Origin: a virus
Length of the DNA: 30,605 bases
Direction: 5' to 3' (one strand)
IMG/VR virus record: IMGVR_UViG_3300024351_000062
Span: 1-30,605 of that record
Under the pieces are notes generated by a model. It saw only the letters and a program-made list of their open reading frames with translations. It was not told the DNA's origin and searched no databases. Position numbers and translations under genes: made by a program. Positions 2,371-20,714 of this stretch are shown piece by piece. Position 1 is the first letter of the stretch. Each line of letters starts with the position of its first letter.

Positions 2371-2378
2371 TATTTATT
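2371..2378 (-). promoter_or_regulatory. Putative gp55-type late promoter AATAAATA before the 215-residue gene
   Basis: On the minus strand the octamer AATAAATA overlaps the TAA stop of the giant gene (2377-2379). T4 late promoters need only a TATAAATA-like -10 box, and cyanophage late promoters are described as NATAAATA. The same octamer stands before gp6 and before the gp48-like gene. Transcription would start near 2365, which favours Met8 as the start of the downstream protein. Confidence 0.5.
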
Positions 2379-5300
2379 ATGGCAAATTTGTAGTCTTCTG
2401 CTGTAGGAACGTCACTATCGAAGTTTTGCTATTGCTTAATCCTTCTCCGGTAGTAGCTGAACTGTTACCAACATCATACCATAGCTTGCCGGTTCTCTTA
2501 ACCACTGTGATCCTAGTTGCTGCTTCTACAGCCGAAGTTAATCTTATATATGGCGTTGATCCATCTACAGAAAATTCAGCTTCTACTAGCACATCGCCCG
2601 CAGGGCTATGTGAACCTACAGTTTGATCGTATACGTAGACAGGATCTTTGTTCAATCTGCGTCCAGCCACAAATACTTCGATAGTATCGCATGGTCCGTA
2701 CTCTTCAGGTATACTGTCTACCGGCCATTCTTTCCTGTATCCTGTTCCATCTACAGCAGATTTAGCAGGAATAAAAGTTAATGGCCCAATAAGCAAAGAA
2801 GTTCCGTCTGATACAAAATCTTCTTTTTCTTGAGAATCCTTGTAAGGAATAGCTTCTGTATAACCTGTGATTACTACTTCAGTTCCCGCACTAAACAATG
2901 GCGTTACAGAAGTACCAAACATACCTCTTCTTAATCCCGTTAGACGATTACCATCTATAGCTAGATATTGTATTTTTTCTCCGCCTATAGTCACTATACC
3001 CGGCTGATCAAATTTGGGTACAGGAAGTGCTGTAGCATCTGTCAGTGTCATAGATTCGTCATAGTAATTTAAATTTTCTACCAATTTGATGTTAGACAAT
3101 GAGTATCTGCTGTAATAATTTTTGTTCAACACATCTTTAAATATTTCAAACGATACCGGTTCACGATAAATCATATCAGATCCGCTGATTATTTCCACTA
3201 CATCAGTAGAGGTTGTAATAAATGAAGGATTGAATATAATTTCGTTTCTATTTCTTGATAGATAGTAATCTATATCCTGTGTAGCTCTTTCACCATTTAC
3301 ATATACCCATACATAAGAAACTCCTAAAACAGGTTTTTCTAGAGAATAAGCTAATTCGCCACCTTTAAAGATGTCTCTGGTTAGATCCATCGTAGTATAC
3401 TGTTCAAACCACTTGACGTTTAAAACATCACCTAATTGTAGATTTAAATCTGTCCTAAAAACAATATTGTTATTTTTGATTTCATAGTTGCTATTAGAAT
3501 AATCTTCTATCCTAATAATATCTCCTATGTCATATTTTCCAAACAGAGTCACTGTGTTGTCTTCAGCTGTGAACCCATAATCGATACCAAATATCAATAA
3601 ATTGTCATTTACAAAAACTTTAACTTGGCTATCGATAATATCTCCTGGGTTTCTAAAAGGATCTAAACCTATCTTTATAGAATCGTTACCTGAATAGATT
3701 TCTATAACAGTATCAACAGTGGTTAGTAAGTTACCGTTTCTTTCTACAAGAACGTTACTTGTAGGTGATCCTCCTAGATTGATAAATGATTCTAAAGGAT
3801 ATATTCTTTGTACGATATCAGTTACTGTTATAGTTTGATCATTGACTTTGATCAAAGGAGAATATGATCCCGATTCAGCAGATAGAACAACGATAGAAAT
3901 CTTTCTGTTAACTTCCGGAGGATTACCAAACTCTACTAGAGTTTGATCTAGATCATTTACCTGTCCTTTGCTGTTAACGAATCCGGCATCAACGATCTGT
4001 CCATCAACAGTAGCATAGATAGATCCAGTTTCAAAATATGATGCTCCTGTTAGATAATATCTTGTTAGTCCGTCTGCTATAAATTCTTTATAGTCAAGAA
4101 TTTCTGTACCACCTAACGCCATGGATACAACTTCTATTGTAGAACCAGCAGGTGGTAAAACTCCGACGAATCTAACTTGATTAGTTTCAAAAGATATTGT
4201 ATAATCTAGGCCGTTATCTTTTTTGACTTTATCGACATAAACTGTAACAGATTTTCTCTCAGTTACTTTCTGACCTATTTCATAGAGATCTGTCTGACCG
4301 TCTCCAAAATAAATTCTAGTTAATAGCGCAGGAGCTCCTGCTCTATCAGTATGGAACACTTTGATACTAAGTGTATCTAAAACCTGTCCCGGAACATTTT
4401 CCTCTGGAGCAGGTACTTGTTCTGGACTGATAAATTTTTGTCCGTCTAATACTATCTCAGAAGCAGTTTTACCTGTCGCTGTAGAGTATGCTCCACCTAT
4501 ATTTGTTAGATCCCCGCCAGATATAGCCGTATCGATATTTCTACCTACTAGTGCTACAGTACCATCACTTTCGATCGGTCTGAATATCAGTGTATCATCT
4601 TTATCGATTTGTACTCCCGGAGGAATCGTTACAGCTATAGTAGATCCATCACCAACAAATGTCTGCATCACAGCATGTTCGGGAGCTTCTTTCAAGCCGT
4701 TTATCTGTATCGTGCTTCCATCATAATAGTCAAAGAAAGGATCGTCTAATCTGACAGAATTGTATTCTAATTTCTTTCTTAGATAGATTGTTATTTCTTT
4801 ACCTAGAGGTGGCGGTTCAGGTAGATAGAATGTTCTATTAACACCATCAGCTGCTACATAAAAATCAGTGTTCATGTCGCCGGAGCTGTCCCATCCTTCT
4901 AATCCCCATGGCACAGCATCCCAACCAGCACCTACATCAAACATTGATCCTTGTACTATAACTCCGCCAAAGTCTATGCCGGTGACTAGCTGTGAATAAT
5001 CGCTGATTATTTCGCCATCTATTGTGTTCTTTTCTACACCTAACATACCAGATGTTGGTTGATAATACTTGTCTATCCTATTAAGAGCATCAAGTATTTC
5101 GTCATTCTTTTCGTAATGAACTGTAACTGTAGCACCCTGTGGCGGAGCTGCGTTCAATAATAATTGACCAGTAAGAACTTCCGTTCCAGAAATATTTGTC
5201 TTGAAAATCTTGATCAAATATTGGCTGTTTAACAACTTGGCACCGTCTGTGCCTGCTGCTGTATTAGGATGTTTTAAAAATACAGCAATCTTAGATTTGT

Positions 5301-8300
5301 CTGTAGTGGGTGGATACTTTAGTGTGAAAGTATTTTTAGTACCAGGACATACAAATGATTCTGTTTCTAAGAAATTGTTTCCTAGATTTTTAAACTTCGG
5401 AGTCTTTGAATATCTATCAAACTTGATAGACATATCAAATGTACGAGCTTTAGATTGTCCTATGATGGCTACAGCTTTAGCAGAATTTTCTATCACTGTA
5501 CCAACACCGCCAACTAATGTTACTGTAGGAGCAGAAGTATATCCTGATCCATGCTTGATCATTCTTATATGTGTTACTACGCCGCTAGAAACAAATGCTT
5601 GTGCTTCTGCTCCATTACCACCACCGCCTTCGATGACTACCTTAGGTACGCTGGTATAGTTCTTTCCGCTGTATGTCAATACGATGTCTTTGACTACAAA
5701 AGCATGATTGTCTTTCCAGAATTTCCAAGGGTACTGATCGATTTCCAATCTTGTAGAATCAACAGGAACTATGCTTTGTGAATTAATATCAAAGACTGGA
5801 GGTAAATCAAAATCACTAATCGGTGAAGATGCTAGCTCTTGCCCTAAGTACCTACTGGTATATTTTCTAATTTTGGTTCTATAAGGTTTAACTTCTTCGA
5901 TATATTTCTGATAGCTAGAAAGATTATCGCTCTTATAGTTGATCCTATTGCTAAAATAACCAACGTTGTGTGTTGCGTTCAAGAAACTGGTCTTGAATGC
6001 CCAATCGACATAAAGTTGTTCGCTGAATATGTAATGTATAGAAACAAAGAACAACTTGTTCCATTCGTTACTAAGTTCATCGATGAATATATTTTCTTTT
6101 ACCGCTTTTAGAATATTTCTAAACTCGATAGAGAACGAAGTATCATATTTGTTACTATCATAGCTTTGAGTTAAATCGTATCCTGTAGATTCCGCAGCAG
6201 TATTGTAGAACTTATTAACTATCTGGATAGTTCCATTTTTACGACCAACTAAACGATATTTGTTTTGTAAATCAGTAGCTATCGGATCGACTGTTTCAAA
6301 AACTGCCCAACCGCCAGAACCATATTCATCCACTCTTACTAGATCTCCTATCTCTACAGTCAGACCTGATTCTCTATAAAGTCCAGGAATAGTATATTTG
6401 ATTCTAGAAGTATTGCTAAATCCCGACTTCCAATAGTCGACAGGAATCCAGAATTTAGTGGTATCATATGCTTGTGTTGCTGTCTTATAAAATGTTTCTG
6501 TTTTATCATCCCAACTATAGATAGCCCAATAGCCGTTTGAGTTCACATCGCTTTCGATCAATACAGAAAACGGTCTAACATTTAGTCTAGCATTGATATA
6601 CTTGGTGCCGCTATTTTCAATGATGACACCAGTCACCACGCCTAATTTATTAATAACTGTTTTAATCTTTGCGCCGGTGCCTGACCCATCTATTTCGACA
6701 TAAGGTGGTACTCTATATCCTCGACCACCATCTATAACATCAACAGAAGTTATTTTTCCGTTAGCTATATTAGCTGACAACAAAGCCGGTTTTATTTTAG
6801 CAGTAGCTATAGTAGATAATTCTTTATAGCTGGCAAAAGATTGATCATACAGATTTAAATTAGATTTAGGTAATGGTGCTGTTAAATTTAAATATTCATA
6901 AGAAATAGAATCTGCCAATGGATAACGAGAAAGTATATTGTTAATATAATCTACTGTTATCTGTACCGCTTTATTTCTGTTAATAAACATAGACTGTCTA
7001 GGTCTATTGGCTATTCCGTATTTTGATTTTTCTGGAAGATCTTTATCAGGAACTGATCTACCTAGAATATCTTCACCAACAAGACTGTCGATCCACTTTC
7101 TTTCTATATCTTCAACAGGATATTCATCAGAACCTTCTGTCAACAGAGTATATTCGTTGTGGACTAGATTTATGTTTTTATCAGTTTTATAGAATTGTAT
7201 ATTCAATAAAAATTCATCAGTATTGATAGAACCTTGTAAGTTATACAAAGAAATTTTATCAACATCAGTTATAGCAGCAAACGGAATTCCTGCTGTCGTT
7301 GGATTAGCAATGTAATTTGCTATAACTCCTGCGCTATTTGTTTTAGTAGAATTATTAGGCAGAGTATTTTTGCTTCTTACCCAATAATAGTAAACATTAT
7401 ATAATACTTCGCCGGTTATTGAGTCTAGTTTTTGCTTGTAAGAATAGTTTGAATCATCAGGATACAATGGTGTCCCGCTGATACCTTCTTCAAAACCAGC
7501 AGTAGTGCCAGTCATAGCTGCCCACTCGCTAGGCCTATAAATGGTTTCTACCCATTCGTAAACATCGATGCTAGCACCATATGCTAGTGAACCCCAATTA
7601 GCTGTCTTATAAACAAAATCATTTTGTTCATAATCAAGATACTTTGCGGTAGATGTTCTCCACCATATCTTACCAACATTATCATCCATCCATGCTTGGC
7701 CGGCGTCGATAGCATTATCAACAGTACCAGTAGAATAAACAGCAGGATCATAAGATGTTTTATAATCTATATCTTGATCAGCTATAGAAAGTATCTTTCC
7801 TTTAAATGGATCTATTATATCAAGGTCAGCAATCTTGCGATTATTAACAGCATCGTATATGGCTAGATTTTTTAATTTGTCTATATCTATGCCGTTTGTT
7901 TGCTGCCTAATCACTGTCCAAGGTTTTACTCCTGCTTTCTTAGTAAATTTTTGTATCCTACCAATCCTAGTAGTAGCAAAAGCAGGATCTAATGATAGAT
8001 ATTTTGGTGATCCAACAATGATCGAATCATTGGATGCTGAAAGAGACTTACCAAAGTCTTCATTGGTGTTAAGGCCTTCATCAAATATTTCTGAAAGAAC
8101 AAACTTACCTACATACTTGTCAAACACATAGACTTTACCAGTTTTTCCTTGTGAATCTTTGAAGTTGGTAACAAAACGATCAAATCTAGTATCATTAGCA
8201 TCAAATGTTGTAGTTTTATAACTTTCAGCACCTTCAGCTGAAATAGCTATAGTTTGATTATCAGGAGTGATACAGATATTTGAACCGAATCTTTCGTTAG

Positions 8301-11300
8301 GATCTAGTTGACCGCTATCTAGTTTTTGTATCAGTTTATATGTTCCGTTTTTGTTTTCAAATACGAATGTAGCTCCCTGGTCTACTCCTTTGAAGTTAGA
8401 AGCAGGAGCAGTAACAAACATATTTGTGGATTCAGAACTTAATAGAATCTTGTAACCAAATTGATCGCCTGCGGAGATTTCTGTACTGTCAGTAAGATAA
8501 GAATTAACATTAACAGAATCTATATGTTGAGAAAGTTTATATGTGTTATTGCTATCTCTATCATAGATAAACACCGCACCAGTCCTTGGCTGCTCTTCAG
8601 GATATTCTATAGACCAAATCGAAGGATTACCTTCCGGTATAGTTCCTTTATCAGAATCTGCTGCCAATGTATAGTAGCTGTCGTTTCTCCTAACAGTATC
8701 TCCTTTGAGATATATTTGATAGGATTTCCAGACACCTTTATACGAATCAAATGTCAGGCTATCTGCGTTAGGTGCTCCAATTATTAACTTGCTGCCATCG
8801 GCATTAAAACTTAATGAATATCCATACGATGAACCTATTTTAATATTTTCTACATCATCAGTCGGTTTGATACCAGTTTGTATAGTAGATCCGTCATCTG
8901 GGGTAGCTGCTGTTACTGGCAGCATACCTGTATTCAATGAATCAATAGCTTCCCAATAGACTGTAGAATCACCAGTAATAACTCCGGGAGTTTCTGTGTT
9001 AGGTGATATATCTGATAGAGCTTTGTAATAATTGTTTGTGTGCCAAACAACTGTACCTGCCGGATAGAATTTGGTGCTGTCAAATATTCCAACAAAACCT
9101 TCATCTTGGAAATGCGTCCATTCGATTCCGTTAAATTTATAAAGATATACTCTACCAGTATCGTCTAGAGATCCCGGAGCACCAACTGCCATATAATAAG
9201 TTTCAGGAACAGCACCAATCGAAGTTCCTAAAATCCTAATTTGATCTCCTACATTATAGCGTAAACCTTTAACACCAACGGTAGCTGAATATGAACCTTC
9301 TGCCCTCGTCAATGTAAAGATAGCACCATTACCCGGCTCGCTGATATCTTCACCAACAACATCGTTATATTGTGCTTCGCCGGAAGATGCTATGCCACTC
9401 CAAGAAATTCCTGGTACCGCTGTACCAAAGAAACTAAAATCAGATATAGAAGTATCTGTAGCTGATGTTACAGCATCGACTCTTATAGTTAAATCATTAG
9501 CTGGTGAATATCCGCCTAGTTCAGTTCCGGGAATAGTTATTATTGTACCTGGAGTATAAGTAACTCGCAACCCTGTAGTAATTGCTCTATCTCTCCAAGG
9601 CAGAGCATTTGAAGCAAAATTAGATCCAGTAACTGGTTCCCAGAAATCAGTATCTGTAGGTAAGATAGGATTATGTGTTTCGTAATACTGTTCATCAGGT
9701 GGTGCTATCCCAGTAACTATAGCAGTCACTTTAAAATAGCCTACAGGTAGTACTGGATTATATTGATAATAAACTATATCACCTGGATAATATGTAGTGT
9801 TGATATCCCAGGCACCTCGTTCAATTCTAGTATCTCTAATACAGGCATAGTATCTACCGTTATAACTAACAATGCTTCTTGCTGTATATCCCTGACCACT
9901 GTTTGTCAAATTAACATCAACATACAAATCCCTAAGTTTTGAAATTTGAAATACCGCTTGTTCAGATACGAGATTTGATTCTATACCGGTCACATTATTA
10001 TATGTTTCCGATCCTAAAATTTCACCTAAAGAATTTACTGCGTTGACTGTTACAATAAGATCATTTGTAGGTGTTACTCCACCAAGGCGACTACCAACTA
10101 TCTTGATCCTGTCACCGACCGCGTATCTTGTGCCACCGTTTCTAACTGTTACAACATATCTATTCAATGCTCTGTTGATGTCAAACGAAGCATTAGAACC
10201 GGGTTCGCTGACATCTATACCACTGATGTTTTCAAATATAGCATTATTAAGACCACTGACTCCCGATGCTGTTACTCCGAGGATTCCTCCTTCGGCATCT
10301 ACAGTTGTGACCGTCAATGTAACATCACCACTAGTTCCTTCAATTCCAGCTACTTTAGCTATAGATATACCAGAAGCAAAGTATTCACCGTGTCCCGGGC
10401 GAGGACTTATAATGGTATCTCGTAAAACATATTGTCCTTCGGAATATTCAAAGATATCGATAGCACCTTGATTTCTATAACCTTGATTTATATCATAGAT
10501 AGATTTGCCTAATGGGTTGGCTTTATGAATTACAGCTGGTTCCCAATCTTGAGAATTAAGATTTATCGTACTACCATCACCGTAAATAGATCTAACCGCT
10601 CTCCATAGTTTGCCAGCATAAAGAACAGTGTCGTCTTGCTGATAGGTAGCATTTGGATCAAATGTTTCTCTATAATTACTAGGCACATAAGAAACGTTAG
10701 GTGAGCCTATCATCAACCAGCGACCATCTTCGCTAGTTGTCATTACTGTAGCATAAGAACCCAGATATGTGCTTTGAAGACCAGAATTAGGTACTAATAC
10801 CTGTAACGGTATCAAGCCACCCTGGCCCTGAGAATATACTATAACTGCCGACTCTCTAGTAACATCACCAGAAGTAACAACTGCGCCAGGGTTACCAACA
10901 ATAGTGTTTCCTCTGCTGGCTAGATAGATCACACTGGCTCCTGTACCTGTCGGGAAAGCGATACCGTATTCGGATATCTGTGTAGGATTATATTGTTTCT
11001 GTCTATTCAATACTTGCCAATATCCATCTCCACTATCATCTAACCATATCTTAGATCCTACCGGTAATAAAGCAATTTTCTTAGATGTAAGATAAGATTG
11101 ATCATCAATCCTTACTGTTTCAAATGTAGAGATATAACAGAAACTACTTTGATCTATAACAGGTTCTTTAGTAGTACCTGCTACAGCTATGATAATCGTC
11201 TTAGGATTAACTCCGGCTACCTGATAAAAACCTGTTAGGTTTTCTATGTTAGTCAATCCAATAATATCGCCTACTTTAAAATTGTGTACAATATTAGTGA

Positions 11301-14300
11301 TTAACGAAACAAATCCTGTTTCGACTGCTACTGCTTTACCTACTAAGATTGATGTTATAGTATATCTATATACATCCCAGCCTGTTGGTAGGGAGGTCAA
11401 CCATACTAACGAACCTTCTTTAAATATTGTTATATCAAGACTGTATAATTCGTCAAGTGTAGTAACTGTAAAATCGACGTCGGCAGGATTTACATACCCC
11501 GCAGACATATTGTTTATAGGATAGTATTTTGTAGGAAATTTAAATTTCCTAGATCCTATCTTATAATCAGAGTCTTTTACCAATACAGATGTTTGATACT
11601 GCTTAATATCTATTCCTGTTGTATCTAATAACACAGGTTGCGGATTGATATTGATATTTTCTTTTTTGATCGAAACTTCTATTTCATTAGACTGATCAAT
11701 ACCACCTAGTCTACCTACAAGAAATGCCCATTCTTCATCAAGAACGACAGCATCTGCTTCGATAGCACTCACCTTGTCAAATATCTTAGTGATAGAATTT
11801 GCTGTACCTTTTTCTCTTATGAAGCCTTGGTATAATCTAAATTGAGTTACTTCATCTTCTGCTATATCCTGTAGGTATTCTCTTTGTTGATACCCAATAG
11901 AGTGTTGTGCTAACTTTTTCTGTTCGTTATCGATACCGATATAGTCTAGTTCGAAATAATCTTCTATTTGATTGATTTTATAATCAAAATTAGATACTAG
12001 ACCTTTCTGAGGAAGATTATCTAATCTTTCCCAATTATTAGAATTAAATTCAACGGAACCTTTTTGAAACTTCAAGCTGGTATAGTAAAACTGTTTGTAT
12101 TGTACTATATCTCCTAATCTATAATCAGTAAACGGTTTCCAAGTTTCTATATTAACATCGTCATAGATGAATCCCGGACTTGTGTAGTCACCATCCCAGT
12201 CGGTGGTACGGAAACCTGCGACTTTGATTCTTTCTTGTCGATATCCTGGTGCCTTATCAAATATAACATCACCAAACACAGTTCTATCATTGAATACAAC
12301 TACGTGTTCTTTGGTCACATAATTGATTTTAGCAAAATAAATTCCGTCTGTGCTATCAAGAGGTGTTAGTATAAACTTGTTAAATGTCCTATAAACCTGT
12401 ATGTCCTTAGGTTGTATTTTTGTCCCGTCACTTCTTTGTATATTATAATCATAAAAATTATCAAGTAGATTATCAGCGACTCGACCAACTTTTTCTATAG
12501 TGATCGCAGACGCAGACGGGCTTAGTGAAATGATAGAACCATTGGCCCAATTATGAGTAGTCCAGAACATGAATTCTTTGCAACTAGTTTCCCAATCATT
12601 GGGTACTTGTAAATCTGTATTAAAAGATTCAAATACCATTCCCTGGTCTTTGAGATATTCTCCATAACCAAGAAGGAAATCTACTACAGACTGTAAATCA
12701 GCGAATACAGTATTATATGGCAGCACAGCCGGCTGATACTTAGAAAATTTACTTCTGTTAATAGCTGTAATCGATCCAACTATGGGAACCGACAGTATAG
12801 ATACCCAAAGAGAACTTTCAAAATTTTCTGAGCTAGTATGAGCCTGTCTAGATCTGTAAAATTTACTTTGATATCTAATCAATGTTCCTGATGGATAGTA
12901 TTGATTAGCAGTCCACTCTACAAAAGTTTCGCTAACACCGCCTACAGAAAATACAGGATCACTAGCTGTAGTCAATGGATGATAATATGTAAAAGCAGAA
13001 ACTAATGTGTCATAGCCTGTGAGTTTCCAACCCGAAGATGTTTTTTCGATAATTACAGCCGAATAAGAAACAGTTTCTACTGGTGTGCTAACATTAAAAA
13101 ATATCTCATAATCTTCAGAAGGAACAAAAATTCCTGAAGTTTTAGATTGAGGACTCTTGCTATCTAACAAATACTTCTGTTGATTTTTATCTACGAACCC
13201 ACCTATCTTGTTAGATAATTTTACTTTAAAATTATCAGAATTAAATTTTGAAGCTAATTCTACAGATGCTACAGAATTAGATTTTAGATAATCAACGACA
13301 TAATTTACGAGACCTTTTGGTTTTGTAACATCTAGTGTTGATTGATAAACTTCATCTAAACTAAGGAATTTTCCTGTAGACGTAGACACCATTTGATCCA
13401 TATCATTTTTAGTCAACAGCGTTCTGTCAAAATTCAATGATACAGTCTGTAATGGTCGTAATAAAATAATTGCTTGTAATAGAGCGAAAGGATATCTGCC
13501 ACTTTTTCTCCAAGCAGATTCAGCCGGACCTATGTCGCCAAATACAAATGCTTCGGCAGGCTGTATGATAGCATAATTTATAATCGATCCAGATGACACA
13601 GGATCTAATAATCTACCCTCATCGTCAACTGGAAGATAAGAAAGCAAGTTTGGTCTCTTGAATCTAATATGAGTACCTGCTCTATTACCTTGTCTAATTA
13701 CACCGTCTCTTATATCTTCCCACAACAATAAGTTTCCACTAGTGTACGGTGCTGGACCATACTCTTCTTCCCACCATGTTGGTTTTTCACTAAAACCTAG
13801 CATTTCCCATGGTCGAGTATGAGGAGCATCAGTATCATATAGATAGATATAAATGCCTCGCCAGTATGCTGGCATTTTTTCAGTTCGAGTTATATCTGTG
13901 GCTTTAGAAAAGCTATAGGTGTACTGATTTTCGCTTTCAAAATAGTTATTAGCATAAGGATCTATTCCTAATGGATTAGCCCATCTTAAAAATTCTTGAT
14001 TTAATACACTGTCTAATTGTGCTTTAGTGAATTCACCAGTCTTTCCATAACCGCCCAAAAGATTATCAAGATCTAAGAAATCAGGATTGTATTGAATCTT
14101 GATATTGTTATAAATTCTTTTTTCTAATTCTAAAAGTAGTTCATCTCTGAAATCATCATAAGCTACTATAATACTACCGTCATGCCCTCTTATCACTCTA
14201 GTAGGTTCTAGATATGTGTCGTCGAGATAAATCTCAGGTGTAAATTTTTTATATAATCCTAATTTAGTAGGAGTCATCGGCATAAAATTAAATGCCGTTG

Positions 14301-17202
14301 TATAATATTCTTTTATCTGTATCTGATCATTTTCTACTAAGTCTATCAGTAAACGAACAAACCCAAATGTAGAATCAAATTCATAATCTCTACCAACTAA
14401 AAGCTGTACGTTGTTGCGATAAACATAAACAGCTTTTAATGATTCAGTAGATAAGTCAAATTTCTGAGAAAGAGCAAAAACTTTTATACCTTCGTCTTCT
14501 ACAGTATAATCGATAGAATTATACGCACCGCTACCAATCATGTCTGAATTAGCAAAAGGCGAATTACTATTTTTTGATTTGCTAATATGATCGATGATCT
14601 GATCAACAAATTTTACTGTATCTAGTTCAAACGGTAATTCTACAGCTAAATTTAAAAATTCTGATTTATATTTGTCATATTCTAAAGCAGCATAAGAAAT
14701 AGCCTTGATTACATTAATCTGTCTATCACAGACCAAAGGTAATGATATAGAAGGTACTCCAGAATGTTTTATAAATCTTCTACCGTAATAGAGGTAATCA
14801 TCTATATCTCTAAGATTGCTTATACCAGGAAATTGTCCAGAAAAATCTCTAGATAATTCTACCATAGATCTTAGATGATCATTAACCTGGCCTAAAGTGA
14901 ATTGTGCTACATCTTCATTAAGTGGATTTCTTTCTAATGGCAACGGAAATTCATAAAAACCTAAATTAGGTTCAGCATCAGAATAAACTTTAATCATCAG
15001 TACATCATTTACAGCAAACTCTCTGATAAATGTAAAAGTTCTTTTATCGTTGATGACAGTATCTGTGTACGAATCTTTGATTAAATCTCCGTTGAGATAG
15101 AAGAGAATTTTTTCTCTAGTAACTTGATCCCAAAAAACAGCATCAAACTCCACTGTGTTTGTAACTTCAGTAAAGGTATGAGTCTGTATTACTGCCTGAC
15201 AATAATCTTCATCAAACAATGACCAAGAATTCTTATGTACCCAACTGCCTAGCTCTTTTAACAGTCTGTAATAACCAAAATTTATATTTCTTGTTACGAC
15301 TGTTGGTCCGGACTGATAGGTAAAGTTCTGTGTTTCAAAATCAAAATCAAAAAGTATATCGCCAGTATTATTGATATTAAGGTAACTGACTGCGAATCCT
15401 AATTCTTTGTCCACTACTCCCGCAGGATCAACTTTGTAACTTATCAATCTAGTTCCTTGGAAACTAGATGTTACATATTTTTGTGTATCTGAAAGGCTGA
15501 CATTATCGCTATCAAATATATCGAATAATGGTGCTTGGTTGACTGCTAGTTTTTCCTGGCTCTTCTTCCATACTGTTCCATCAAAATGATACATCTTGCC
15601 GGCATTTGTTTTGCCTTTAGTAACGATAAGACATTCTCCAGCTAGTGTTTCACTGTCATCTGCTTCTACTAGATTTATTTGTTTTCTGTTAACTGTGTTA
15701 GTGCTAGTCTGGATCGTGACAAATTTAACAACATAGATCTTGTTATTGACCATATTGTCGTTGTCTGCTGTAAACAGAACTCTAGCTCCTTCAAACAACG
15801 GCACATTGTCGATATTATATCCAGCAGTGCCTTCTATAGTAGAAAACACATCAGTGGTAAAATCATCGATTAGATCTACGCTGTTCTTGGCTTTAGAACC
15901 ATGGTTGAAAAGCTGTAGATTAGTTTGGAATTCTATGATAGGACGTTTAGCTCTGCTGTCTTCAGCTAATCCCGCCGTGGTGCCATTTAATTGGGCAGAA
16001 TATTCTATGACACTTCTATGGAACCAACGATTGTAACGACTCCATGGATTCTTATCCAAGCTGGCACGATTGATGGTTATATAATCTTTTTTAGACGGAT
16101 AGGTAGAAGCATCATCGAATGGTTCTGTGTCAAAAGGCTGATCGTCAAACACCAATGCTCCGTAAGGATTTGGTATGGGAGGTAACTCTAAATCTGACAA
16201 ATTAATCAGTTTGATACCTGTGCCTACTCCTTCTACTATCCAATAACCTTTTCTGTAGATTTCCGGAGAAGTTTTGCCTACAAATTCTACTCGTAGTCCA
16301 TTGGTAAATTTTACACCGTTGCTGCTTTGATAATTGAGCTTACCGATAATATCTTTTTCTACATCGAGATATGTATTATCTAATACGTTAGCTATCCTAA
16401 AAGAACCTATACGGTTGATATTAGTTCCACTTTGATAGTAGAGCATGTCTGGTGCATCATTAGGAACTTTAAATGTGATTTTGCCAACTTCAATGCCGTT
16501 ATTAGTAACACCCTTGTTGTAATCTGATGGTGTTCCTAGCAGTGTTGTAAGATAATCGATCGTGTCTGAAGTTCTAATATGGAAACCGTCGCCTGGACAA
16601 TTAACATTAAATTCATATGTCTGCCCTCGATACAAAGTTATCGCAGGATTTCTTTTTAATCCGTCAGGAAAAAATAACCATTCATTCTGTCCTTCGGTTA
16701 CTACTTTGTATGAAGATACTACTGATTGTTCTTGTCCTAATACCTGTACAGGATCTGGTCCGGCAGGAAGCCAATAGTATTCTCTATAATTAACAAACTT
16801 GTCTAGGTCGAGAGGTGGAGTCCATGTATAGTGCTGCTGACCTGTAGTTAGATCATCTCTTTCATTTTTGTTATTAAAAAATTTTAATTGATTTTTTAGA
16901 TCTACATAATCAAAAAGATTTTTAGGTTTTTTATTTTCATCGTAGATCACTACGCCGGGTTCAAATTGATAAGCGTGTCTTAGGCTTTGAGCGACATCTA
17001 AGTAAACGTCACTAGTATTATATGTGCGACCATAATTGCGCCCAATGTAACCGTTTAATCTATCTAAGGTACCTGGCTGTATTAAAGGATCTAAAGTAGC
17101 TGACAAAAATTTGTCATTAGACGAAGACCTAAAAATTTCAGGTAATAGTTCTACGGTCCTCCTTAGAGGTAAACCACTTTGTTTAAAAACTTTTTTATCC
17201 AT
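2377..17202 (-). CDS. Giant multidomain baseplate/tail protein (4941 residues), gp7 position
   Basis: One uninterrupted frame starts 2 nt after gp6. T4 gp7, the wedge protein at this position, has about 1030 residues. Residues 1 to about 1050 are an N-terminal region of a type I recall from T4-like aquatic phages (LDKFVNYREYYWLPAGPDP near 135-155; RGHDGSIIVAYDDFRDELLL near 1003). A stretch near 1790-1812 (FIREKGTANSITKIF) loosely recalls the KGT-S-F stretch of T4 gp7. Residues about 2090-3105 read as an FG-GAP-like beta-propeller interrupted by aromatic glycan-binding-like modules and another repeat family. Conserved blocks follow near 3200-3420 and 3760-3780 (YIEEVKPYRTKIRKYTS). Two GYTSxP-type repeat regions lie near 3480-3520 and 3838-3895, and about six beta-sandwich-like repeats fill 3960-4675. 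No transmembrane segment or signal peptide was noticed. Likely role: wedge-associated structural protein with added host-surface binding. The assignment to gp7 rests on gene order; the domain calls are by eye. Confidence 0.85.
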   Translation of the reverse strand: MDKKVFKQSGLPLRRTVELLPEIFRSSSNDKFLSATLDPLIQPGTLDRLNGYIGRNYGRTYNTSDVYLDVAQSLRHAYQFEPGVVIYDENKKPKNLFDYVDLKNQLKFFNNKNERDDLTTGQQHYTWTPPLDLDKFVNYREYYWLPAGPDPVQVLGQEQSVVSSYKVVTEGQNEWLFFPDGLKRNPAITLYRGQTYEFNVNCPGDGFHIRTSDTIDYLTTLLGTPSDYNKGVTNNGIEVGKITFKVPNDAPDMLYYQSGTNINRIGSFRIANVLDNTYLDVEKDIIGKLNYQSSNGVKFTNGLRVEFVGKTSPEIYRKGYWIVEGVGTGIKLINLSDLELPPIPNPYGALVFDDQPFDTEPFDDASTYPSKKDYITINRASLDKNPWSRYNRWFHRSVIEYSAQLNGTTAGLAEDSRAKRPIIEFQTNLQLFNHGSKAKNSVDLIDDFTTDVFSTIEGTAGYNIDNVPLFEGARVLFTADNDNMVNNKIYVVKFVTIQTSTNTVNRKQINLVEADDSETLAGECLIVTKGKTNAGKMYHFDGTVWKKSQEKLAVNQAPLFDIFDSDNVSLSDTQKYVTSSFQGTRLISYKVDPAGVVDKELGFAVSYLNINNTGDILFDFDFETQNFTYQSGPTVVTRNINFGYYRLLKELGSWVHKNSWSLFDEDYCQAVIQTHTFTEVTNTVEFDAVFWDQVTREKILFYLNGDLIKDSYTDTVINDKRTFTFIREFAVNDVLMIKVYSDAEPNLGFYEFPLPLERNPLNEDVAQFTLGQVNDHLRSMVELSRDFSGQFPGISNLRDIDDYLYYGRRFIKHSGVPSISLPLVCDRQINVIKAISYAALEYDKYKSEFLNLAVELPFELDTVKFVDQIIDHISKSKNSNSPFANSDMIGSGAYNSIDYTVEDEGIKVFALSQKFDLSTESLKAVYVYRNNVQLLVGRDYEFDSTFGFVRLLIDLVENDQIQIKEYYTTAFNFMPMTPTKLGLYKKFTPEIYLDDTYLEPTRVIRGHDGSIIVAYDDFRDELLLELEKRIYNNIKIQYNPDFLDLDNLLGGYGKTGEFTKAQLDSVLNQEFLRWANPLGIDPYANNYFESENQYTYSFSKATDITRTEKMPAYWRGIYIYLYDTDAPHTRPWEMLGFSEKPTWWEEEYGPAPYTSGNLLLWEDIRDGVIRQGNRAGTHIRFKRPNLLSYLPVDDEGRLLDPVSSGSIINYAIIQPAEAFVFGDIGPAESAWRKSGRYPFALLQAIILLRPLQTVSLNFDRTLLTKNDMDQMVSTSTGKFLSLDEVYQSTLDVTKPKGLVNYVVDYLKSNSVASVELASKFNSDNFKVKLSNKIGGFVDKNQQKYLLDSKSPQSKTSGIFVPSEDYEIFFNVSTPVETVSYSAVIIEKTSSGWKLTGYDTLVSAFTYYHPLTTASDPVFSVGGVSETFVEWTANQYYPSGTLIRYQSKFYRSRQAHTSSENFESSLWVSILSVPIVGSITAINRSKFSKYQPAVLPYNTVFADLQSVVDFLLGYGEYLKDQGMVFESFNTDLQVPNDWETSCKEFMFWTTHNWANGSIISLSPSASAITIEKVGRVADNLLDNFYDYNIQRSDGTKIQPKDIQVYRTFNKFILTPLDSTDGIYFAKINYVTKEHVVVFNDRTVFGDVIFDKAPGYRQERIKVAGFRTTDWDGDYTSPGFIYDDVNIETWKPFTDYRLGDIVQYKQFYYTSLKFQKGSVEFNSNNWERLDNLPQKGLVSNFDYKINQIEDYFELDYIGIDNEQKKLAQHSIGYQQREYLQDIAEDEVTQFRLYQGFIREKGTANSITKIFDKVSAIEADAVVLDEEWAFLVGRLGGIDQSNEIEVSIKKENININPQPVLLDTTGIDIKQYQTSVLVKDSDYKIGSRKFKFPTKYYPINNMSAGYVNPADVDFTVTTLDELYSLDITIFKEGSLVWLTSLPTGWDVYRYTITSILVGKAVAVETGFVSLITNIVHNFKVGDIIGLTNIENLTGFYQVAGVNPKTIIIAVAGTTKEPVIDQSSFCYISTFETVRIDDQSYLTSKKIALLPVGSKIWLDDSGDGYWQVLNRQKQYNPTQISEYGIAFPTGTGASVIYLASRGNTIVGNPGAVVTSGDVTRESAVIVYSQGQGGLIPLQVLVPNSGLQSTYLGSYATVMTTSEDGRWLMIGSPNVSYVPSNYRETFDPNATYQQDDTVLYAGKLWRAVRSIYGDGSTINLNSQDWEPAVIHKANPLGKSIYDINQGYRNQGAIDIFEYSEGQYVLRDTIISPRPGHGEYFASGISIAKVAGIEGTSGDVTLTVTTVDAEGGILGVTASGVSGLNNAIFENISGIDVSEPGSNASFDINRALNRYVVTVRNGGTRYAVGDRIKIVGSRLGGVTPTNDLIVTVNAVNSLGEILGSETYNNVTGIESNLVSEQAVFQISKLRDLYVDVNLTNSGQGYTARSIVSYNGRYYACIRDTRIERGAWDINTTYYPGDIVYYQYNPVLPVGYFKVTAIVTGIAPPDEQYYETHNPILPTDTDFWEPVTGSNFASNALPWRDRAITTGLRVTYTPGTIITIPGTELGGYSPANDLTIRVDAVTSATDTSISDFSFFGTAVPGISWSGIASSGEAQYNDVVGEDISEPGNGAIFTLTRAEGSYSATVGVKGLRYNVGDQIRILGTSIGAVPETYYMAVGAPGSLDDTGRVYLYKFNGIEWTHFQDEGFVGIFDSTKFYPAGTVVWHTNNYYKALSDISPNTETPGVITGDSTVYWEAIDSLNTGMLPVTAATPDDGSTIQTGIKPTDDVENIKIGSSYGYSLSFNADGSKLIIGAPNADSLTFDSYKGVWKSYQIYLKGDTVRRNDSYYTLAADSDKGTIPEGNPSIWSIEYPEEQPRTGAVFIYDRDSNNTYKLSQHIDSVNVNSYLTDSTEISAGDQFGYKILLSSESTNMFVTAPASNFKGVDQGATFVFENKNGTYKLIQKLDSGQLDPNERFGSNICITPDNQTIAISAEGAESYKTTTFDANDTRFDRFVTNFKDSQGKTGKVYVFDKYVGKFVLSEIFDEGLNTNEDFGKSLSASNDSIIVGSPKYLSLDPAFATTRIGRIQKFTKKAGVKPWTVIRQQTNGIDIDKLKNLAIYDAVNNRKIADLDIIDPFKGKILSIADQDIDYKTSYDPAVYSTGTVDNAIDAGQAWMDDNVGKIWWRTSTAKYLDYEQNDFVYKTANWGSLAYGASIDVYEWVETIYRPSEWAAMTGTTAGFEEGISGTPLYPDDSNYSYKQKLDSITGEVLYNVYYYWVRSKNTLPNNSTKTNSAGVIANYIANPTTAGIPFAAITDVDKISLYNLQGSINTDEFLLNIQFYKTDKNINLVHNEYTLLTEGSDEYPVEDIERKWIDSLVGEDILGRSVPDKDLPEKSKYGIANRPRQSMFINRNKAVQITVDYINNILSRYPLADSISYEYLNLTAPLPKSNLNLYDQSFASYKELSTIATAKIKPALLSANIANGKITSVDVIDGGRGYRVPPYVEIDGSGTGAKIKTVINKLGVVTGVIIENSGTKYINARLNVRPFSVLIESDVNSNGYWAIYSWDDKTETFYKTATQAYDTTKFWIPVDYWKSGFSNTSRIKYTIPGLYRESGLTVEIGDLVRVDEYGSGGWAVFETVDPIATDLQNKYRLVGRKNGTIQIVNKFYNTAAESTGYDLTQSYDSNKYDTSFSIEFRNILKAVKENIFIDELSNEWNKLFFVSIHYIFSEQLYVDWAFKTSFLNATHNVGYFSNRINYKSDNLSSYQKYIEEVKPYRTKIRKYTSRYLGQELASSPISDFDLPPVFDINSQSIVPVDSTRLEIDQYPWKFWKDNHAFVVKDIVLTYSGKNYTSVPKVVIEGGGGNGAEAQAFVSSGVVTHIRMIKHGSGYTSAPTVTLVGGVGTVIENSAKAVAIIGQSKARTFDMSIKFDRYSKTPKFKNLGNNFLETESFVCPGTKNTFTLKYPPTTDKSKIAVFLKHPNTAAGTDGAKLLNSQYLIKIFKTNISGTEVLTGQLLLNAAPPQGATVTVHYEKNDEILDALNRIDKYYQPTSGMLGVEKNTIDGEIISDYSQLVTGIDFGGVIVQGSMFDVGAGWDAVPWGLEGWDSSGDMNTDFYVAADGVNRTFYLPEPPPLGKEITIYLRKKLEYNSVRLDDPFFDYYDGSTIQINGLKEAPEHAVMQTFVGDGSTIAVTIPPGVQIDKDDTLIFRPIESDGTVALVGRNIDTAISGGDLTNIGGAYSTATGKTASEIVLDGQKFISPEQVPAPEENVPGQVLDTLSIKVFHTDRAGAPALLTRIYFGDGQTDLYEIGQKVTERKSVTVYVDKVKKDNGLDYTISFETNQVRFVGVLPPAGSTIEVVSMALGGTEILDYKEFIADGLTRYYLTGASYFETGSIYATVDGQIVDAGFVNSKGQVNDLDQTLVEFGNPPEVNRKISIVVLSAESGSYSPLIKVNDQTITVTDIVQRIYPLESFINLGGSPTSNVLVERNGNLLTTVDTVIEIYSGNDSIKIGLDPFRNPGDIIDSQVKVFVNDNLLIFGIDYGFTAEDNTVTLFGKYDIGDIIRIEDYSNSNYEIKNNNIVFRTDLNLQLGDVLNVKWFEQYTTMDLTRDIFKGGELAYSLEKPVLGVSYVWVYVNGERATQDIDYYLSRNRNEIIFNPSFITTSTDVVEIISGSDMIYREPVSFEIFKDVLNKNYYSRYSLSNIKLVENLNYYDESMTLTDATALPVPKFDQPGIVTIGGEKIQYLAIDGNRLTGLRRGMFGTSVTPLFSAGTEVVITGYTEAIPYKDSQEKEDFVSDGTSLLIGPLTFIPAKSAVDGTGYRKEWPVDSIPEEYGPCDTIEVFVAGRRLNKDPVYVYDQTVGSHSPAGDVLVEAEFSVDGSTPYIRLTSAVEAATRITVVKRTGKLWYDVGNSSATTGEGLSNSKTSIVTFLQQKTTNLP
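3180..5300 (-). repeat. C-terminal run of about six beta-sandwich-like repeats in the giant protein
   Basis: Residues about 3960-4675 repeat the pattern DG-T-x-Y-x-L, then V-x-V-(D/N)-G, then G-x-DY-x-I, then V-x-F-x-x-x-P-P-x-G-x-x-I-x-V at roughly 60-110 residue spacing. Clear examples are SVTVYVDKVKKDNGLDYTI with FVGVLPPAGSTIEVV (about 4315-4360), KVFVNDNLLIFGIDYGF with KYDIGDIIRIEDY, and WVYVNGERATQDIDYYL (about 4633). The copies are diverged at the DNA level, so this is an old protein repeat and not a recent tandem duplication. Confidence 0.6.
7900..10935 (-). other. FG-GAP-like beta-propeller region of the giant protein, with inserted modules
   Basis: Successive blades carry an inner motif of the type YGYSLSFNADGSKLIIGAP and an outer strand of the type GAVFIYD...YKLSQHI. 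Outer strands are visible at residues about 2117-2135 (VIVYSQGQGGLIPLQVL), 2245-2262 (AIDIFEYSEGQYVL), 2680-2695 (RVYLYKFNGIEWTHF), 2873-2895, 2942-2960 (ATFVFENKNGTYKLIQKL), 3020-3040 (KVYVFDKYVGKFVLSEIF) and 3080-3100 (RIQKFTKKAGVKPW). That is seven, the number in integrin-type propellers. In three blades the loop between the GAP/GSP motif or its preceding strand and the next strand is replaced by another module of about 50 to 385 residues. Confidence 0.6.
9215..10350 (-). repeat. Repeat family GG-x-RY-x-VGD-x-I in the giant protein
   Basis: Residues about 2285-2663 contain full and partial copies of one unit: V-x-x-G-(T/L)RY-x-VGD-(R/Q)I-(K/R)I-x-G, then LGG-x-(T/S)P-x-NDL-x-(V/I)-x-V-x-AV, then a linker ending GI or GED with (D/V)SEPG and F-x-(I/L)-x-R. 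The best copies are GTRYAVGDRIKIVGSRLGGV (about 2354) and GLRYNVGDQIRILGTSIGAV (about 2644), with ELGGYSPANDLTIRVDAV (about 2560) as a third. An aromatic module (W near 2465 and 2522) interrupts one copy. The whole block sits inside propeller blade 2. Confidence 0.6.
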
Positions 17203-20200: not shown

Positions 20201-20714
20201 TGCCAAATTCAGTAGTAGACGGCATAGCAGCATTTAAAACAGCGATAAACTGTTGATACCAATTGGTATTTGTAGGATCATTCCATATCACGGTCTGTTT
20301 AGCAAGATTGATACCGTTGGCATCTGTAAGTGTTTCTGTAGTAGAAACCGTGTCAAATTTTAGTAGCCCCTGGGCAGCTTTATTTCTCTTGGCATTATAA
20401 GATAACATACGTGCCAACCTTAACACGCTGTCTTTTCTGCTGGCTAATTCTATGAAATTTTCTCTAGATGCTAAATCAATACGGAACGCAAGATTTTGTC
20501 CCAAGAAGGCGATAAGATCAATTAAGGCGACATATTCGCTAGACTCAATATAATCGTTAAAATCTTCAGCATAGTTTTCTCTCAGATAAGCGGTCATTAC
20601 CCTTCTGAGATTTTCAAAATCGTAACTGGTAAAATCAGCATTTTTGAAAGTTTGGTAAATCCTCTTCCAATCTTCTGCCAATATTAAATTATTTTGTCTA
20701 GCTGTGGTTGTCAT
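17205..20714 (-). CDS. 6: Baseplate wedge protein gp6
   Basis: A 1169-residue gp6 homologue, much longer than T4 gp6 (660 residues). In T4, gp6 dimers link neighbouring wedges into the inner baseplate ring. Recognisable gp6 blocks are the N-terminal helices with ALIDLIAFLGQNLAFRIDLA and SRKDSVLRLARMLSYNAKRN (residues about 64-112), a central region with MITGEDYNLAPLSSSQDILK, and a C-terminal part with AISDFFDVQNFDFGDRFHAS and VPVQTTQAFGSLLEIQS. These are closest, from memory, to gp6 of cyanophage-type T4-like phages. Residues 852-863 (DSNDDGVIDNPD) form an EF-hand or dockerin-like calcium loop. The ATG follows an AATAAATA late-promoter motif by 19 nt, with AGGA about 10 nt upstream as ribosome site. 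It is 2 nt upstream of the giant gene, so the two are probably cotranscribed. Confidence 0.95.
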   Translation of the reverse strand: MTTTARQNNLILAEDWKRIYQTFKNADFTSYDFENLRRVMTAYLRENYAEDFNDYIESSEYVALIDLIAFLGQNLAFRIDLASRENFIELASRKDSVLRLARMLSYNAKRNKAAQGLLKFDTVSTTETLTDANGINLAKQTVIWNDPTNTNWYQQFIAVLNAAMPSTTEFGKSQGTASIDGITTDQYRFNASNTGVPIYTFSKVAGGRSMNFELVSTSIIGKDYIYEEDPIPGNKLGFVYRQDGKGNASSNTGFFLLFKQGSMTTADFTITQPTVNEIINITTNGINNDDLWLYAVDAAGNQGEKWTQVSSLTGNNIVYNSVSNGVKNIYSAITKNNDQVDLLFADGVYGNLPRGSFKIYYRVSNGLRYIISPNELRGVTLSIPYTSSRGTAETLTVTCSLYYSVDNSAASEDMDTIRANAPAVYYTQNRMITGEDYNLAPLSSSQDILKVKSINRSSSGISRNFDIIDASGKYSGVNVFADDGIIYRYDNERTFSFTLSNKTILLNYIKDVIEPAVADFQTYNFYLTNFDKIFLSDVNVKWLQSTADTGSSTGYFGNAFDSFPIRVGSYTTSNLKYLTVNALIKFVPPSSTKAFYKGKVVDYDPMNTDHKTYIWAKVVQVVGDGTNAGKGNLSTGRGPITVSSVIPTGAVPSQVVPKFDNKFTSDIESEIINLCFLNQTFGIRYVRTTNSWAIVTASNIDQTSNFNLGQAGDSTNKSLDASWLIAFIFDGETYKVRLRGTDYVFTSVEQNRFYFDKNQKIYDSKTRTVIKDAVKVLSVNTAPVALNVGSLEVANAILALKTNKPQFTLADVLSIVDSKQTIKEDVSFTVSDSVRYDDGYQANDSIKISFIDSNDDGVIDNPDAFDEIVGTNNTTKYVFFKEDVDEFGAKTYVFVPNKNDYILVRDKEANTAVNDYAHNQLIYFYDQLENFVKRVDLVTNTFILEPSYVGYVGRSDLKFQYIHTSGEGRRIDPSVTNIIDVYLLTRNYDNNYRLWLKGAIATEPQAPTAEALRVEFGNNLAPIKAISDEIVYHPVSYFPLFGSKARAEFQARIKVVKNPNRSINDNDLKVRIVNAISDFFDVQNFDFGDRFHASELITYVVKENSPDISNMVIVPVQTTQAFGSLLEIQSKPDELLVSAVTVDTIDILTNITASDLKLTTSSIVTSTSI

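What the first reader, a model, noticed from the sequence alone, without database searches (positions are those of the whole stretch)
7900..10935. Interrupted beta-propeller with other modules set into its blades inside a 4941-residue baseplate protein
Seven outer-strand motifs and six FG-GAP-like inner motifs can be followed over about 1000 residues. In blade 1 the aromatic module lies between IGSPNV and QGAIDIFEY. In blade 3 another lies between IGAPNAD and GAVFIYD, the same loop. In blade 2 about 385 residues lie between FASGISIAKV and YMAVGAPG. Reuse of the same loop suggests the propeller is a scaffold presenting binding modules around its rim. I know of no described phage baseplate protein with this layout.
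Basis: partly seen in the sequence, partly recalled or inferred. Interest (0 to 1): 0.8.

Follow-up and report, generated by a model that had tools for sequence, protein, structure and literature searches.

The report
Integrin-like propeller in phage baseplate protein
A giant protein of a T4-like virus of bacteria, probably part of its landing platform, carries a seven-bladed propeller of the kind that forms the head of animal integrins, with smaller modules set into a few of its loops; relatives show the propeller both bare and increasingly decorated, so one can see how it was built up.

Summary
A natural relative without large inserts (L130) folds confidently (pTM 0.85) and matches integrin-alpha heads (Z 39.9); the window's own model, inserts in place, also does (Z 26.4; WD40 propellers 24.8), so the ring closes either way. 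In 37 non-redundant propellers, inserts of 25 aa or more lie in B2-C2 (31), C3-A4 (31), B4-C4 (29) and A3-B3 (7). The propeller fills a variable slot of giant T4-like jumbo-phage structural proteins; on a tree it maps to one change, CBM5/12-type inserts to one nested clade, the 386-aa insert to a smaller one. 'Scaffold presenting binding modules' is only partly supported: inserts are not hypervariable, lack the aromatic pair usual in chitin-binding CBMs (recalled), and their solved relatives include baseplate-attachment proteins as well as chitinases. I favour a docking platform. Interrupted phage propellers are known; I found this integrin-type, CBM-loaded form in none of ten literature searches.

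The parts
2377..17202 (-). giant structural protein, 4941 aa, directly downstream of the gp6-like gene (the place of gp7 in T4)
   Evidence: phrog_10938 virion structural protein E 0
11395..17202 (-). conserved N-terminal core, residues 1-1936, shared with Atu_ph07, PA5oct, SCTP-2, Vibrio 2.275.O, RaK2, PBECO4; holds CBM5/12-like segments at 1429-1460 and 1687-1708
7900..10935 (-). slot filled by the seven-bladed FG-GAP propeller with inserts, residues 2090-3101
10789..10935 (-). blade 1 (A1-D1, 2090-2138)
   Evidence: strand map
10702..10746 (-). blade 2, strands A2-B2 (2153-2167)
10468..10701 (-). insert 1, B2-C2 loop, residues 2168-2245, CBM5/12-like
   Evidence: Pfam CBM_5_12 E 1e-4, 22.7 bits, under the 26.2 cut-off on its own; family profile hits chitinase 2rts E 2e-5
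10408..10467 (-). blade 2, strands C2-D2 (2246-2265)
10360..10368 (-). blade 3, strand A3 core (2279-2281)
9202..10359 (-). insert 2, A3-B3 loop, residues 2282-2667 (386 aa): GGxRYxVGDxIxIxG modules around a CBM5/12-like segment
9112..9201 (-). blade 3, strands B3-C3-D3 (2668-2697)
   Evidence: no Pfam match on its own
8773..8817 (-). blade 4, strands A4-B4 (2796-2810)
8581..8772 (-). insert 4, B4-C4 loop, residues 2811-2874, CBM5/12-like
   Evidence: Pfam E 0.006, 17.0 bits, under the cut-off; family profile hits All3316/Cis13 E 5.5e-7
8518..8580 (-). blade 4, strands C4-D4 (2875-2895)
8317..8451 (-). blade 5 (2918-2962)
8083..8292 (-). blade 6 (2971-3040) with a short B6-C6 extension that L130 also has
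7900..8046 (-). blade 7 (3053-3101)
6868..7899 (-). conserved domain C2 (3102-3445; aligned from 3095) directly after the propeller, basis of the family searches and the tree
17205..20714 (-). gp6-like baseplate wedge protein, 1169 aa
   Evidence: phrog_10646 E 2.1e-277 and phrog_219 E 2.8e-25, both 'baseplate wedge subunit'; called gp6 by place and size
20766..21215 (-). gp25-like baseplate wedge protein
   Evidence: PF04965 GPW_gp25 E 1.6e-9; phrog_43

Best explanation
The protein is a giant baseplate-wedge protein of T4-like jumbo phages (place shown by gene order, role inferred). A variable slot between two conserved parts of it was filled by one seven-bladed FG-GAP propeller of the integrin-alpha type (fold shown by prediction and homology). 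In one clade of phages the propeller carries CBM5/12-like modules in the B2-C2 and B4-C4 loops and, in most of its measured members, between blades 3 and 4; in a smaller nested clade, which includes this window's virus, a block of about 380-470 aa also fills the A3-B3 loop (shown by alignment and tree; order of gains inferred from nesting). I think it works as a rigid disc on the outside of the baseplate that serves as an attachment platform: the CBM-like modules on one face bind stable partners, most likely other tail parts (tail-fibre bases, neighbouring wedges), while the opposite face carries the large block as an arm. Direct contact with host glycan is possible but unproven (inferred).
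For: Fold: L130 model pLDDT 82.5, pTM 0.85, 28 strands assignable to seven blades; integrin alpha-M Z 39.9, rmsd 3.0 over 357 residues, Foldseek integrin E 8.4e-15. Window model, inserts in place, pTM 0.64, integrin alpha-L Z 26.4, rmsd 3.2 over 364 residues, model residues 10-1033. Sequence: FG-GAP_2, integrin alpha-4 by profile 3.7e-11. Slot: the main matches stop at residues 1859-2041 and resume at 3082-3127 in the 6 reference phages, with 17 to 1518 aa between; 63 of 76 distinct slots score as propeller, 13 do not. One change on the tree for the propeller, SH-aLRT 98; 26-row clade 99 and 9-row clade 98 (insert lengths). Baseplate: gp25-like and wedge-subunit neighbours, like order in PA5oct, whose homologue gp355 is recorded as ESI-MS/MS-detected. 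Docking: best solved relative of the B4-C4 insert family is All3316/Cis13, a tail-fibre-like baseplate-bound protein; the B2-C2 family also meets Milano gp124 at residues 31-56, marginally (E 0.011), inside its tail-binding module. Inserts are not hypervariable.
Against: The best PDB hit of the B2-C2 insert family is a chitinase (2rts, E 2e-5), and chitin deacetylases follow All3316 in that list, which favours glycan binding. Several inserts are moderately less conserved than the blades. T4 gp7 shows no detectable similarity to the core (hhalign probability under 1%), so the gp7 place rests on gene order alone. For the window model WD40 propellers score almost as well (5yzv Z 24.8, rmsd 2.3 over 286 residues) as integrins; the integrin type rests on L130 and on sequence. 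The passages read do not say whether Cis13 residues 38-88 are its baseplate-binding or its intermediary domain. No fibre partner was identified. The tree is the quick one; the careful search did not finish. The profile used to count propellers was built from members of the family.
Confidence: 0.48

Rival explanations
1. One reading: the propeller is a display scaffold whose CBM5/12 modules bind host-surface glycans (GlcNAc-containing polysaccharide) as a primary or reversible receptor-binding device.
For: CBM5/12 is a chitin-binding family (recalled); the B2-C2 insert family hits chitinase 2rts E 2e-5 and chitin deacetylases; several modules per chain could give avidity; some inserts are less conserved than the blades (clade 1 D3-A4 0.46 and B4-C4 0.47 against 0.58; clade 2 B2-C2 0.44 and D3-A4 0.47 against 0.51); phi11 Gp45 shows a phage propeller proposed to hold GlcNAc.
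Against: The inserts are not hypervariable: clade 1 B2-C2 0.56 and A3-B3 0.56 against 0.58 in blades, clade 2 B4-C4 0.56 against 0.51. 21 of 22 aligned inserts have no aromatic residue at the three positions after the Y/W-x-A strand, where chitin-binding CBM5/12 usually carry a Trp pair (recalled); the other one (L040, B2-C2) has a single Phe there. CBM5/12-like segments also sit in the conserved cores of phages of unrelated hosts (1429-1460 here, 1272-1300 in Atu_ph07, 1595-1618 in PA5oct). In phage A-1(L) a carbohydrate-binding module of the neck fibre did not bind the host.
Confidence: 0.32
2. The propeller and its inserts are neutral bulk: an accreting spacer that enlarges the baseplate and does nothing specific.
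For: The slot can be nearly empty (about 120 aa or less in RaK2 and PBECO4), so the propeller is dispensable for the basic design.
Against: No loss is seen among the 41 rows of its clade, inserts are not much less conserved than blades, and inserts sit in the same few loops.
Confidence: 0.12
3. There is no real propeller; the motifs are coincidental beta-rich repeats.
For: The whole-protein Pfam score is just under the cut-off and the window model as a whole is only moderately confident (pTM 0.64; Foldseek TM-score 0.16 by query length).
Against: Confident natural insert-poor model, Z 39.9 to integrins, profile E 3.7e-11 to integrin alpha-4, FG-GAP_2 up to 1.2e-25 in relatives.
Confidence: 0.02

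Closest known systems
Integrin alpha-subunit head propeller (FG-GAP; e.g. alpha-M 9t3y, alpha-L 5e6u, alpha-4 3v4p)
   Same: seven blades of four strands, FG-GAP repeats, profile and fold match; in some integrins a domain is set into the propeller (alpha-I, between blades 2 and 3, recalled)
   Different: no DxDxDG-type calcium motif found in the window propeller; inserts are CBM5/12-like and phage modules; set in the middle of a 4941-aa phage protein; no beta-subunit sought
PhiKZ gp131C (PDB 4GBF), as cited in PMC4901313 (passages)
   Same: seven-bladed propeller at the periphery of a jumbo-phage baseplate
   Different: described there as a C-terminal domain of its protein; no mention of inserted modules in the passage seen; relation to the FG-GAP type not tested here
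Podophage nozzle protein, SU10 (PMC9509320, passages)
   Same: seven-bladed propeller as core of a tail protein, with domains inserted between blades 2 and 3 and a fibre-dock loop in blade 1
   Different: hexameric nozzle lining the tail channel of a short-tailed phage; Ig-like inserts instead of CBM5/12; no sequence relation tested
Staphylococcus phage phi11 Gp45 (PMC4901313, passages)
   Same: propeller in a baseplate-attached receptor-binding protein with a proposed sugar pocket
   Different: five blades, trimeric, propeller not described as interrupted in the passages seen
Giant structural proteins of Atu_ph07 (AUZ94962.1, 4449 aa), PA5oct (gp355, 3857 aa), SCTP-2 (3807), Vibrio 2.275.O (3771), RaK2 (3326), PBECO4 (3333)
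   Same: homologous cores on both sides of the slot; gene directly after an annotated wedge-subunit gene in PA5oct, RaK2 and PBECO4
   Different: no propeller-profile match in the slot in any of the 6; neighbours unnamed in Atu_ph07 and SCTP-2, and the preceding gene named CBM5/12 protein in Vibrio 2.275.O
S-MbCM6 YP_007001806.1 (7022 aa, cultured cyanophage; 'gp8 baseplate wedge protein' in JN371768.1)
   Same: giant protein directly after a wedge-subunit gene, shares GY-type modules, has an FG-GAP-like tblastn match (E 1e-5)
   Different: no match to the C1/C2 core profiles and none to my propeller profile
Anabaena Cis13 (All3316) and Milano gp124 attachment modules
   Same: CBM5/12-like sequence matching the inserts (E 5.5e-7 and 0.002 for All3316, 0.011 for gp124), in baseplate-attached proteins
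   Different: part of separate fibre-like proteins, not set into a propeller

Membership tests
FG-GAP_2 (PF14312) propeller | repeat profile above the curated cut-off of 23 bits | tested here: met
   34.9 bits on the region; 22.3 over the whole protein; relatives up to 89.9
FG-GAP_2 (PF14312) propeller | seven blades of four strands closing one ring | tested here: met
   by prediction: 28 strands assigned, whole-ring match to integrin heads for L130 and for the window; coordinates not inspected
Integrin alpha subunit | fold of the head propeller | tested here: met
   Z 39.9 for L130 and 26.4 for the window, where WD40 propellers reach 24.8
Integrin alpha subunit | DxDxDG-type calcium sites in A-B loops | tested here: not met
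   0 matches of D.[DN].[DNG]G in window residues 2060-3130; matches in 9 of 42 relatives, 5 of them D-x-D-x-N-G near slot position 495
Integrin alpha subunit | thigh/calf domains, membrane anchor, beta partner | not tested
   not searched; so it is not filed as an integrin
CBM5/12 (PF02839) | profile above the curated cut-off of 26.2 bits | tested here: inconclusive
   45.7 bits whole protein, 35.9 on the region, but each propeller insert alone is below (22.7, 20.5, none, 17.0)
CBM5/12 (PF02839) | aromatic chitin-binding residues after the Y-x-A strand (recalled) | tested here: inconclusive
   no aromatic pair in 22 of 22 aligned inserts and no aromatic at the three following positions in 21 of 22, by eye; the canonical position differs between subfamilies
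CBM5/12 (PF02839) | binds chitin or related glycan | not testable with these tools
   needs a binding assay
T4 gp7 wedge protein | gene directly after gp6 in the baseplate operon | tested here: met
   wedge-subunit gene 17205-20714 then 2377-17202; T4 order 6-7-8
T4 gp7 wedge protein | sequence similarity to T4 gp7 | tested here: not met
   hhalign probability 0.1-0.2% for three core profiles; so it is 'in the place of gp7', not filed as gp7
Podophage nozzle / PhiKZ gp131C propellers | specific structural relation | tested here: inconclusive
   not among the rows shown, which are filled by integrins and other propellers

The most novel reading that the evidence does not exclude
T4-like jumbo phages carry an integrin-type adhesion head in the baseplate: a propeller captured once, then built up by successive nested insertion of carbohydrate-binding-type modules at integrin ligand-face loops, working as a multivalent glycan-adhesive disc, convergent with the insertion of the I domain into integrins.
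Probability: 0.25. Interest if true: 0.78.

Novelty: new variant of a known kind. Interest (0 to 1): 0.6.

Why it matters
It gives a clear fold to a 1000-residue stretch of a giant phage protein that databases call 'virion structural protein', and shows a natural series (no propeller, bare propeller, propeller with CBM-like modules, propeller with a further block of about 380-470 aa) from which the stepwise growth of a giant protein can be read. The same slot varies between phages of different hosts, so it marks where these phages can change the outside of the baseplate. It also cautions against reading every CBM5/12 hit in phage tails as sugar binding.

Tried and rejected
PF01839 FG-GAP over the window's record: no match; the related FG-GAP_2 model does match. 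Search of the region in cultured phages: 8 records, all short module hits (S-CAM1 and AG-345-P14, 13% coverage at most). T4 gp7 homology: none. PDB relatives of the core profiles and of the gp6-like protein: none beyond a CBM (E 0.029) and a chance-level hit (E 0.22). LamG-like domain in the SCTP-2 slot, suspected by eye: Pfam gave nothing, dropped. Loop-length table by hmmalign: large inserts broke the alignment, replaced by a MAFFT alignment; there 5 distant rows (L145, L149, L167, L168, L176) were left out of the count, 37 of 42 used; two further rows with unread residues (L036, L038) had been dropped before. Hypervariable inserts: not seen, though some are less conserved than the blades. 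PHROGs on the propeller: nothing informative. PhiKZ gp131C and the nozzle were not seen in the fold-search rows shown, which excludes nothing.

Literature: 10 searches; passages only of PMC4901313, PMC9509320, PMC10811340, PMC10966104, PMC8894136; everything else seen as listings. None of what I saw describes this propeller. Subscription papers and bioRxiv are not held.
Full report
What is there. The window is an IMG/VR virus record of 30605 bases. On the minus strand lies a T4-like baseplate operon: a small wedge protein (place of gp53), hub genes, a gp25-like protein, a gp6-like wedge protein, then the 4941-aa giant protein, a 215-aa protein and a collar-domain tail fibre; a late sigma factor (gp55) and an SbcD/SbcC-like pair (gp47/gp46) lie on the plus strand. 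PA5oct, RaK2 and PBECO4 are annotated with the same neighbours (late sigma factor, wedge subunit, hub/lysozyme, wedge subunit) before a 3326-3857-aa giant protein; Vibrio 2.275.O has gp53 and a lysozyme-type gene but the gene before its giant is named CBM5/12 protein; in Atu_ph07 and SCTP-2 the neighbours are unnamed. The PA5oct homologue (gp355) carries the record note ESI-MS/MS, so it is reported in the virion.

The slot. Blastp of the giant protein against the six references gives main alignments that end at window residues 1859-2041 and resume at 3082-3127; between these points the references hold from 17 (PBECO4) to 1518 (Atu_ph07) residues; in Atu_ph07 the slot has short repeat-module matches to the window's C-terminal part. 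A profile search with the domain just after the slot (A1) found 464 relatives in IMG/VR, of which the best 80 were kept; with PA5oct first, 463, again 80 kept. Some contigs occur in both lists. Of the 76 distinct slots with both flanks recognised, 63 score 25 bits or more with a propeller profile and 13 score nothing; loci without a recognised left flank or with slots over 2000 aa were dropped, and only exactly identical slots were merged. These are the best-ranked relatives, not a random sample, and the profile was built from family members. None of the six reference phages has a propeller-profile match in the slot.

The propeller. Pfam finds FG-GAP_2 in the region (E 1.7e-8) and more strongly in most of the relatives scanned, up to 1.2e-25 (8 scanned; L131 weakest, 0.0049). 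L130, folded with an alignment of 15 sequences, gives pLDDT 82.5 and pTM 0.85 with 28 strands that I assign to seven blades. The 50 PDB matches that Foldseek listed are all integrins (best E 8.4e-15); VIA-align gives Z 39.9, rmsd 3.0 over 357 residues to an integrin alpha-M headpiece, spanning model residues 46-474. The window's own 1071-residue region, inserts in place, gives pLDDT 72.5, pTM 0.64, low confidence mainly in the inserts, and still aligns with an integrin alpha-L propeller at Z 26.4, rmsd 3.2 over 364 residues, model residues 10-1033; there WD40 propellers come close (Z 24.8 over 286 residues), so this model shows a seven-bladed ring more than an integrin in particular, and by plain Foldseek the match is weaker (E 1.5e-8, TM-score 0.16 by query length). 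I saw secondary structure and alignment ranges, not coordinates.

The inserts. Mapping L130's strands on a 42-row alignment puts the window's inserts in B2-C2 (71 residues more than L130), A3-B3 (381), between C3 and A4 (76; by the window's own model after D3) and B4-C4 (58). In 37 rows (five distant ones set aside) inserts of at least 25 residues occur in B2-C2 31, C3-A4 31, B4-C4 29, A3-B3 7, B6-C6 2, D4-A5 1 and B7-C7 1; the other 19 of 26 intervals have none. Two of the 31 B2-C2 inserts are short (27 aa, L143 and L151). These rows are related, so they are not 37 independent events. B2-C2, B4-C4 and the D3-A4 insert are CBM5/12-like; single copies fall below Pfam's cut-off, the D3-A4 one matches by pattern only. 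L040, L078 and L089 have a much shorter C3-A4 stretch without that pattern, and L116, L138 and L142 have a different module there. The A3-B3 insert starts with the second half of a GGxRYxVGDxIxIxG module and ends with a first half, with further halves and a CBM-like segment between; I infer that the two end halves pair, which would bring both ends of the insert together at the loop.

History. A tree of the C2 domain (59 rows after 85% clustering of 82; quick IQ-TREE, the careful run did not finish) needs one change for the propeller, on a branch with SH-aLRT 98 (41 rows with, 18 without). Within it stands a 26-row clade (99): the 19 of its rows measured all have inserts of 57 aa or more in both B2-C2 and B4-C4, and no measured row outside it has the B4-C4 insert. 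Inside that a 9-row clade (98), including this window's virus (L019), has the long A3-B3 insert: 6 rows measured (381-473 aa), the other 3 (L029, L036, L038) judged by slot lengths of 1183-1187. The root is not fixed, so 'gained once' is the simplest reading, not proof.

Function. Two readings compete: glycan adhesion or protein docking. For adhesion: the family name and a chitinase as best PDB hit of the B2-C2 profile (2rts, E 2e-5), with All3316 second and chitin deacetylases after it. For docking: the best PDB hit of the B4-C4 profile is All3316/Cis13 (E 5.5e-7; chitinase A1 follows at 0.011), a tail-fibre-like protein whose N-terminal domains bind the baseplate of a cyanobacterial contractile injection system (PMC8894136, passages; whether the matched residues 38-88 are that domain or the intermediary one is not said there), and the B2-C2 profile meets Milano gp124 at residues 31-56 (marginal, E 0.011), inside its tail-binding module 1-175 (PMC10811340, passages). 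Mean pairwise identities are: clade 1 blades 0.58, inserts 0.56, 0.56, 0.46, 0.47; clade 2 blades 0.51, inserts 0.44, 0.47, 0.56: equal to moderately lower than the blades, not the hypervariability I would expect of a changing receptor-binding surface. The aromatic pair usual in chitin-binding CBM5/12 (recalled) is missing in 22 of 22 aligned inserts; one (L040, B2-C2) has a single Phe there. In phage A-1(L) a carbohydrate-binding module of the neck fibre showed no host binding (PMC10966104, passage). I put docking first, adhesion second; on rechecking, which shows some inserts less conserved than I had first written, I moved 0.02 of probability from docking to adhesion.

What is known. Propellers in phage tails are known: phi11 Gp45 (five blades), PRD1 P2 and PhiKZ gp131C (seven blades, baseplate periphery), all from PMC4901313 passages, and the SU10 nozzle, seven blades with inserted domains (PMC9509320 passages). 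FG-GAP propellers occur in the viral structure library, including an Atu_ph07 'Hemagglutinin' and an 'FG-GAP repeat' protein of an uncultured phage, and other giant phage proteins carry FG-GAP-like matches: S-MbCM6 (7022 aa) and Phosso gene 108. What I did not find in the ten searches of the held library is an integrin-type propeller within a wedge-operon giant protein, loaded with CBM5/12 modules. Hence a new variant of a known kind.

Noticed in passing
window 21212-22429 and 22426-22845: Two overlapping genes both match the same hub/lysozyme family (phrog_13211, positions 247-408 and 21-131): the gp5-like hub seems split in two, and Pfam at E 0.01 finds no lysozyme domain in either.
   Followed up: partly
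same virus as L004 (G004:C1:191695-192726 and 177510-177737): The modules of the blade-3 insert recur (30-43% identical) in other open frames of 2173 and 2560 aa of near-identical viruses, so the virus reuses them in several large proteins.
   Followed up: no
L185 7780-28848 (S-MbCM6, NC_019444.1 50779-71847): A cultured cyanophage has a 7022-aa protein directly after a wedge-subunit gene, with an FG-GAP-like match and GY-type modules but no match to the C1/C2 core profiles.
   Followed up: partly
L183 4616-15590 (Sinorhizobium phage Phosso gene 108): A protein of over 3650 residues in another jumbo phage has 19 matching stretches to the propeller profile, some of them weak; apparently several propellers in a row.
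   Followed up: no
window 12763-12945 and 11983-12156: CBM5/12-like segments also lie in the conserved N-terminal core (residues 1429-1460 and 1687-1708); Atu_ph07 (1272-1300) and PA5oct (1595-1618) each have one CBM5/12-like segment in their cores too, below the Pfam cut-off.
   Followed up: partly
window residues 3836-3897 (about 5512-5697): The PHROG hit 'head closure Hc2' on the giant protein covers only a GYxxxP-type repeat and probably says nothing about function; similar repeats occur in S-MbCM6 and Atu_ph07.
   Followed up: no
L116, L142, L138 slots: In these relatives a GG-type module like those of the blade-3 insert stands in the C3-A4 region instead, so the same module type has entered different loops.
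   Followed up: partly
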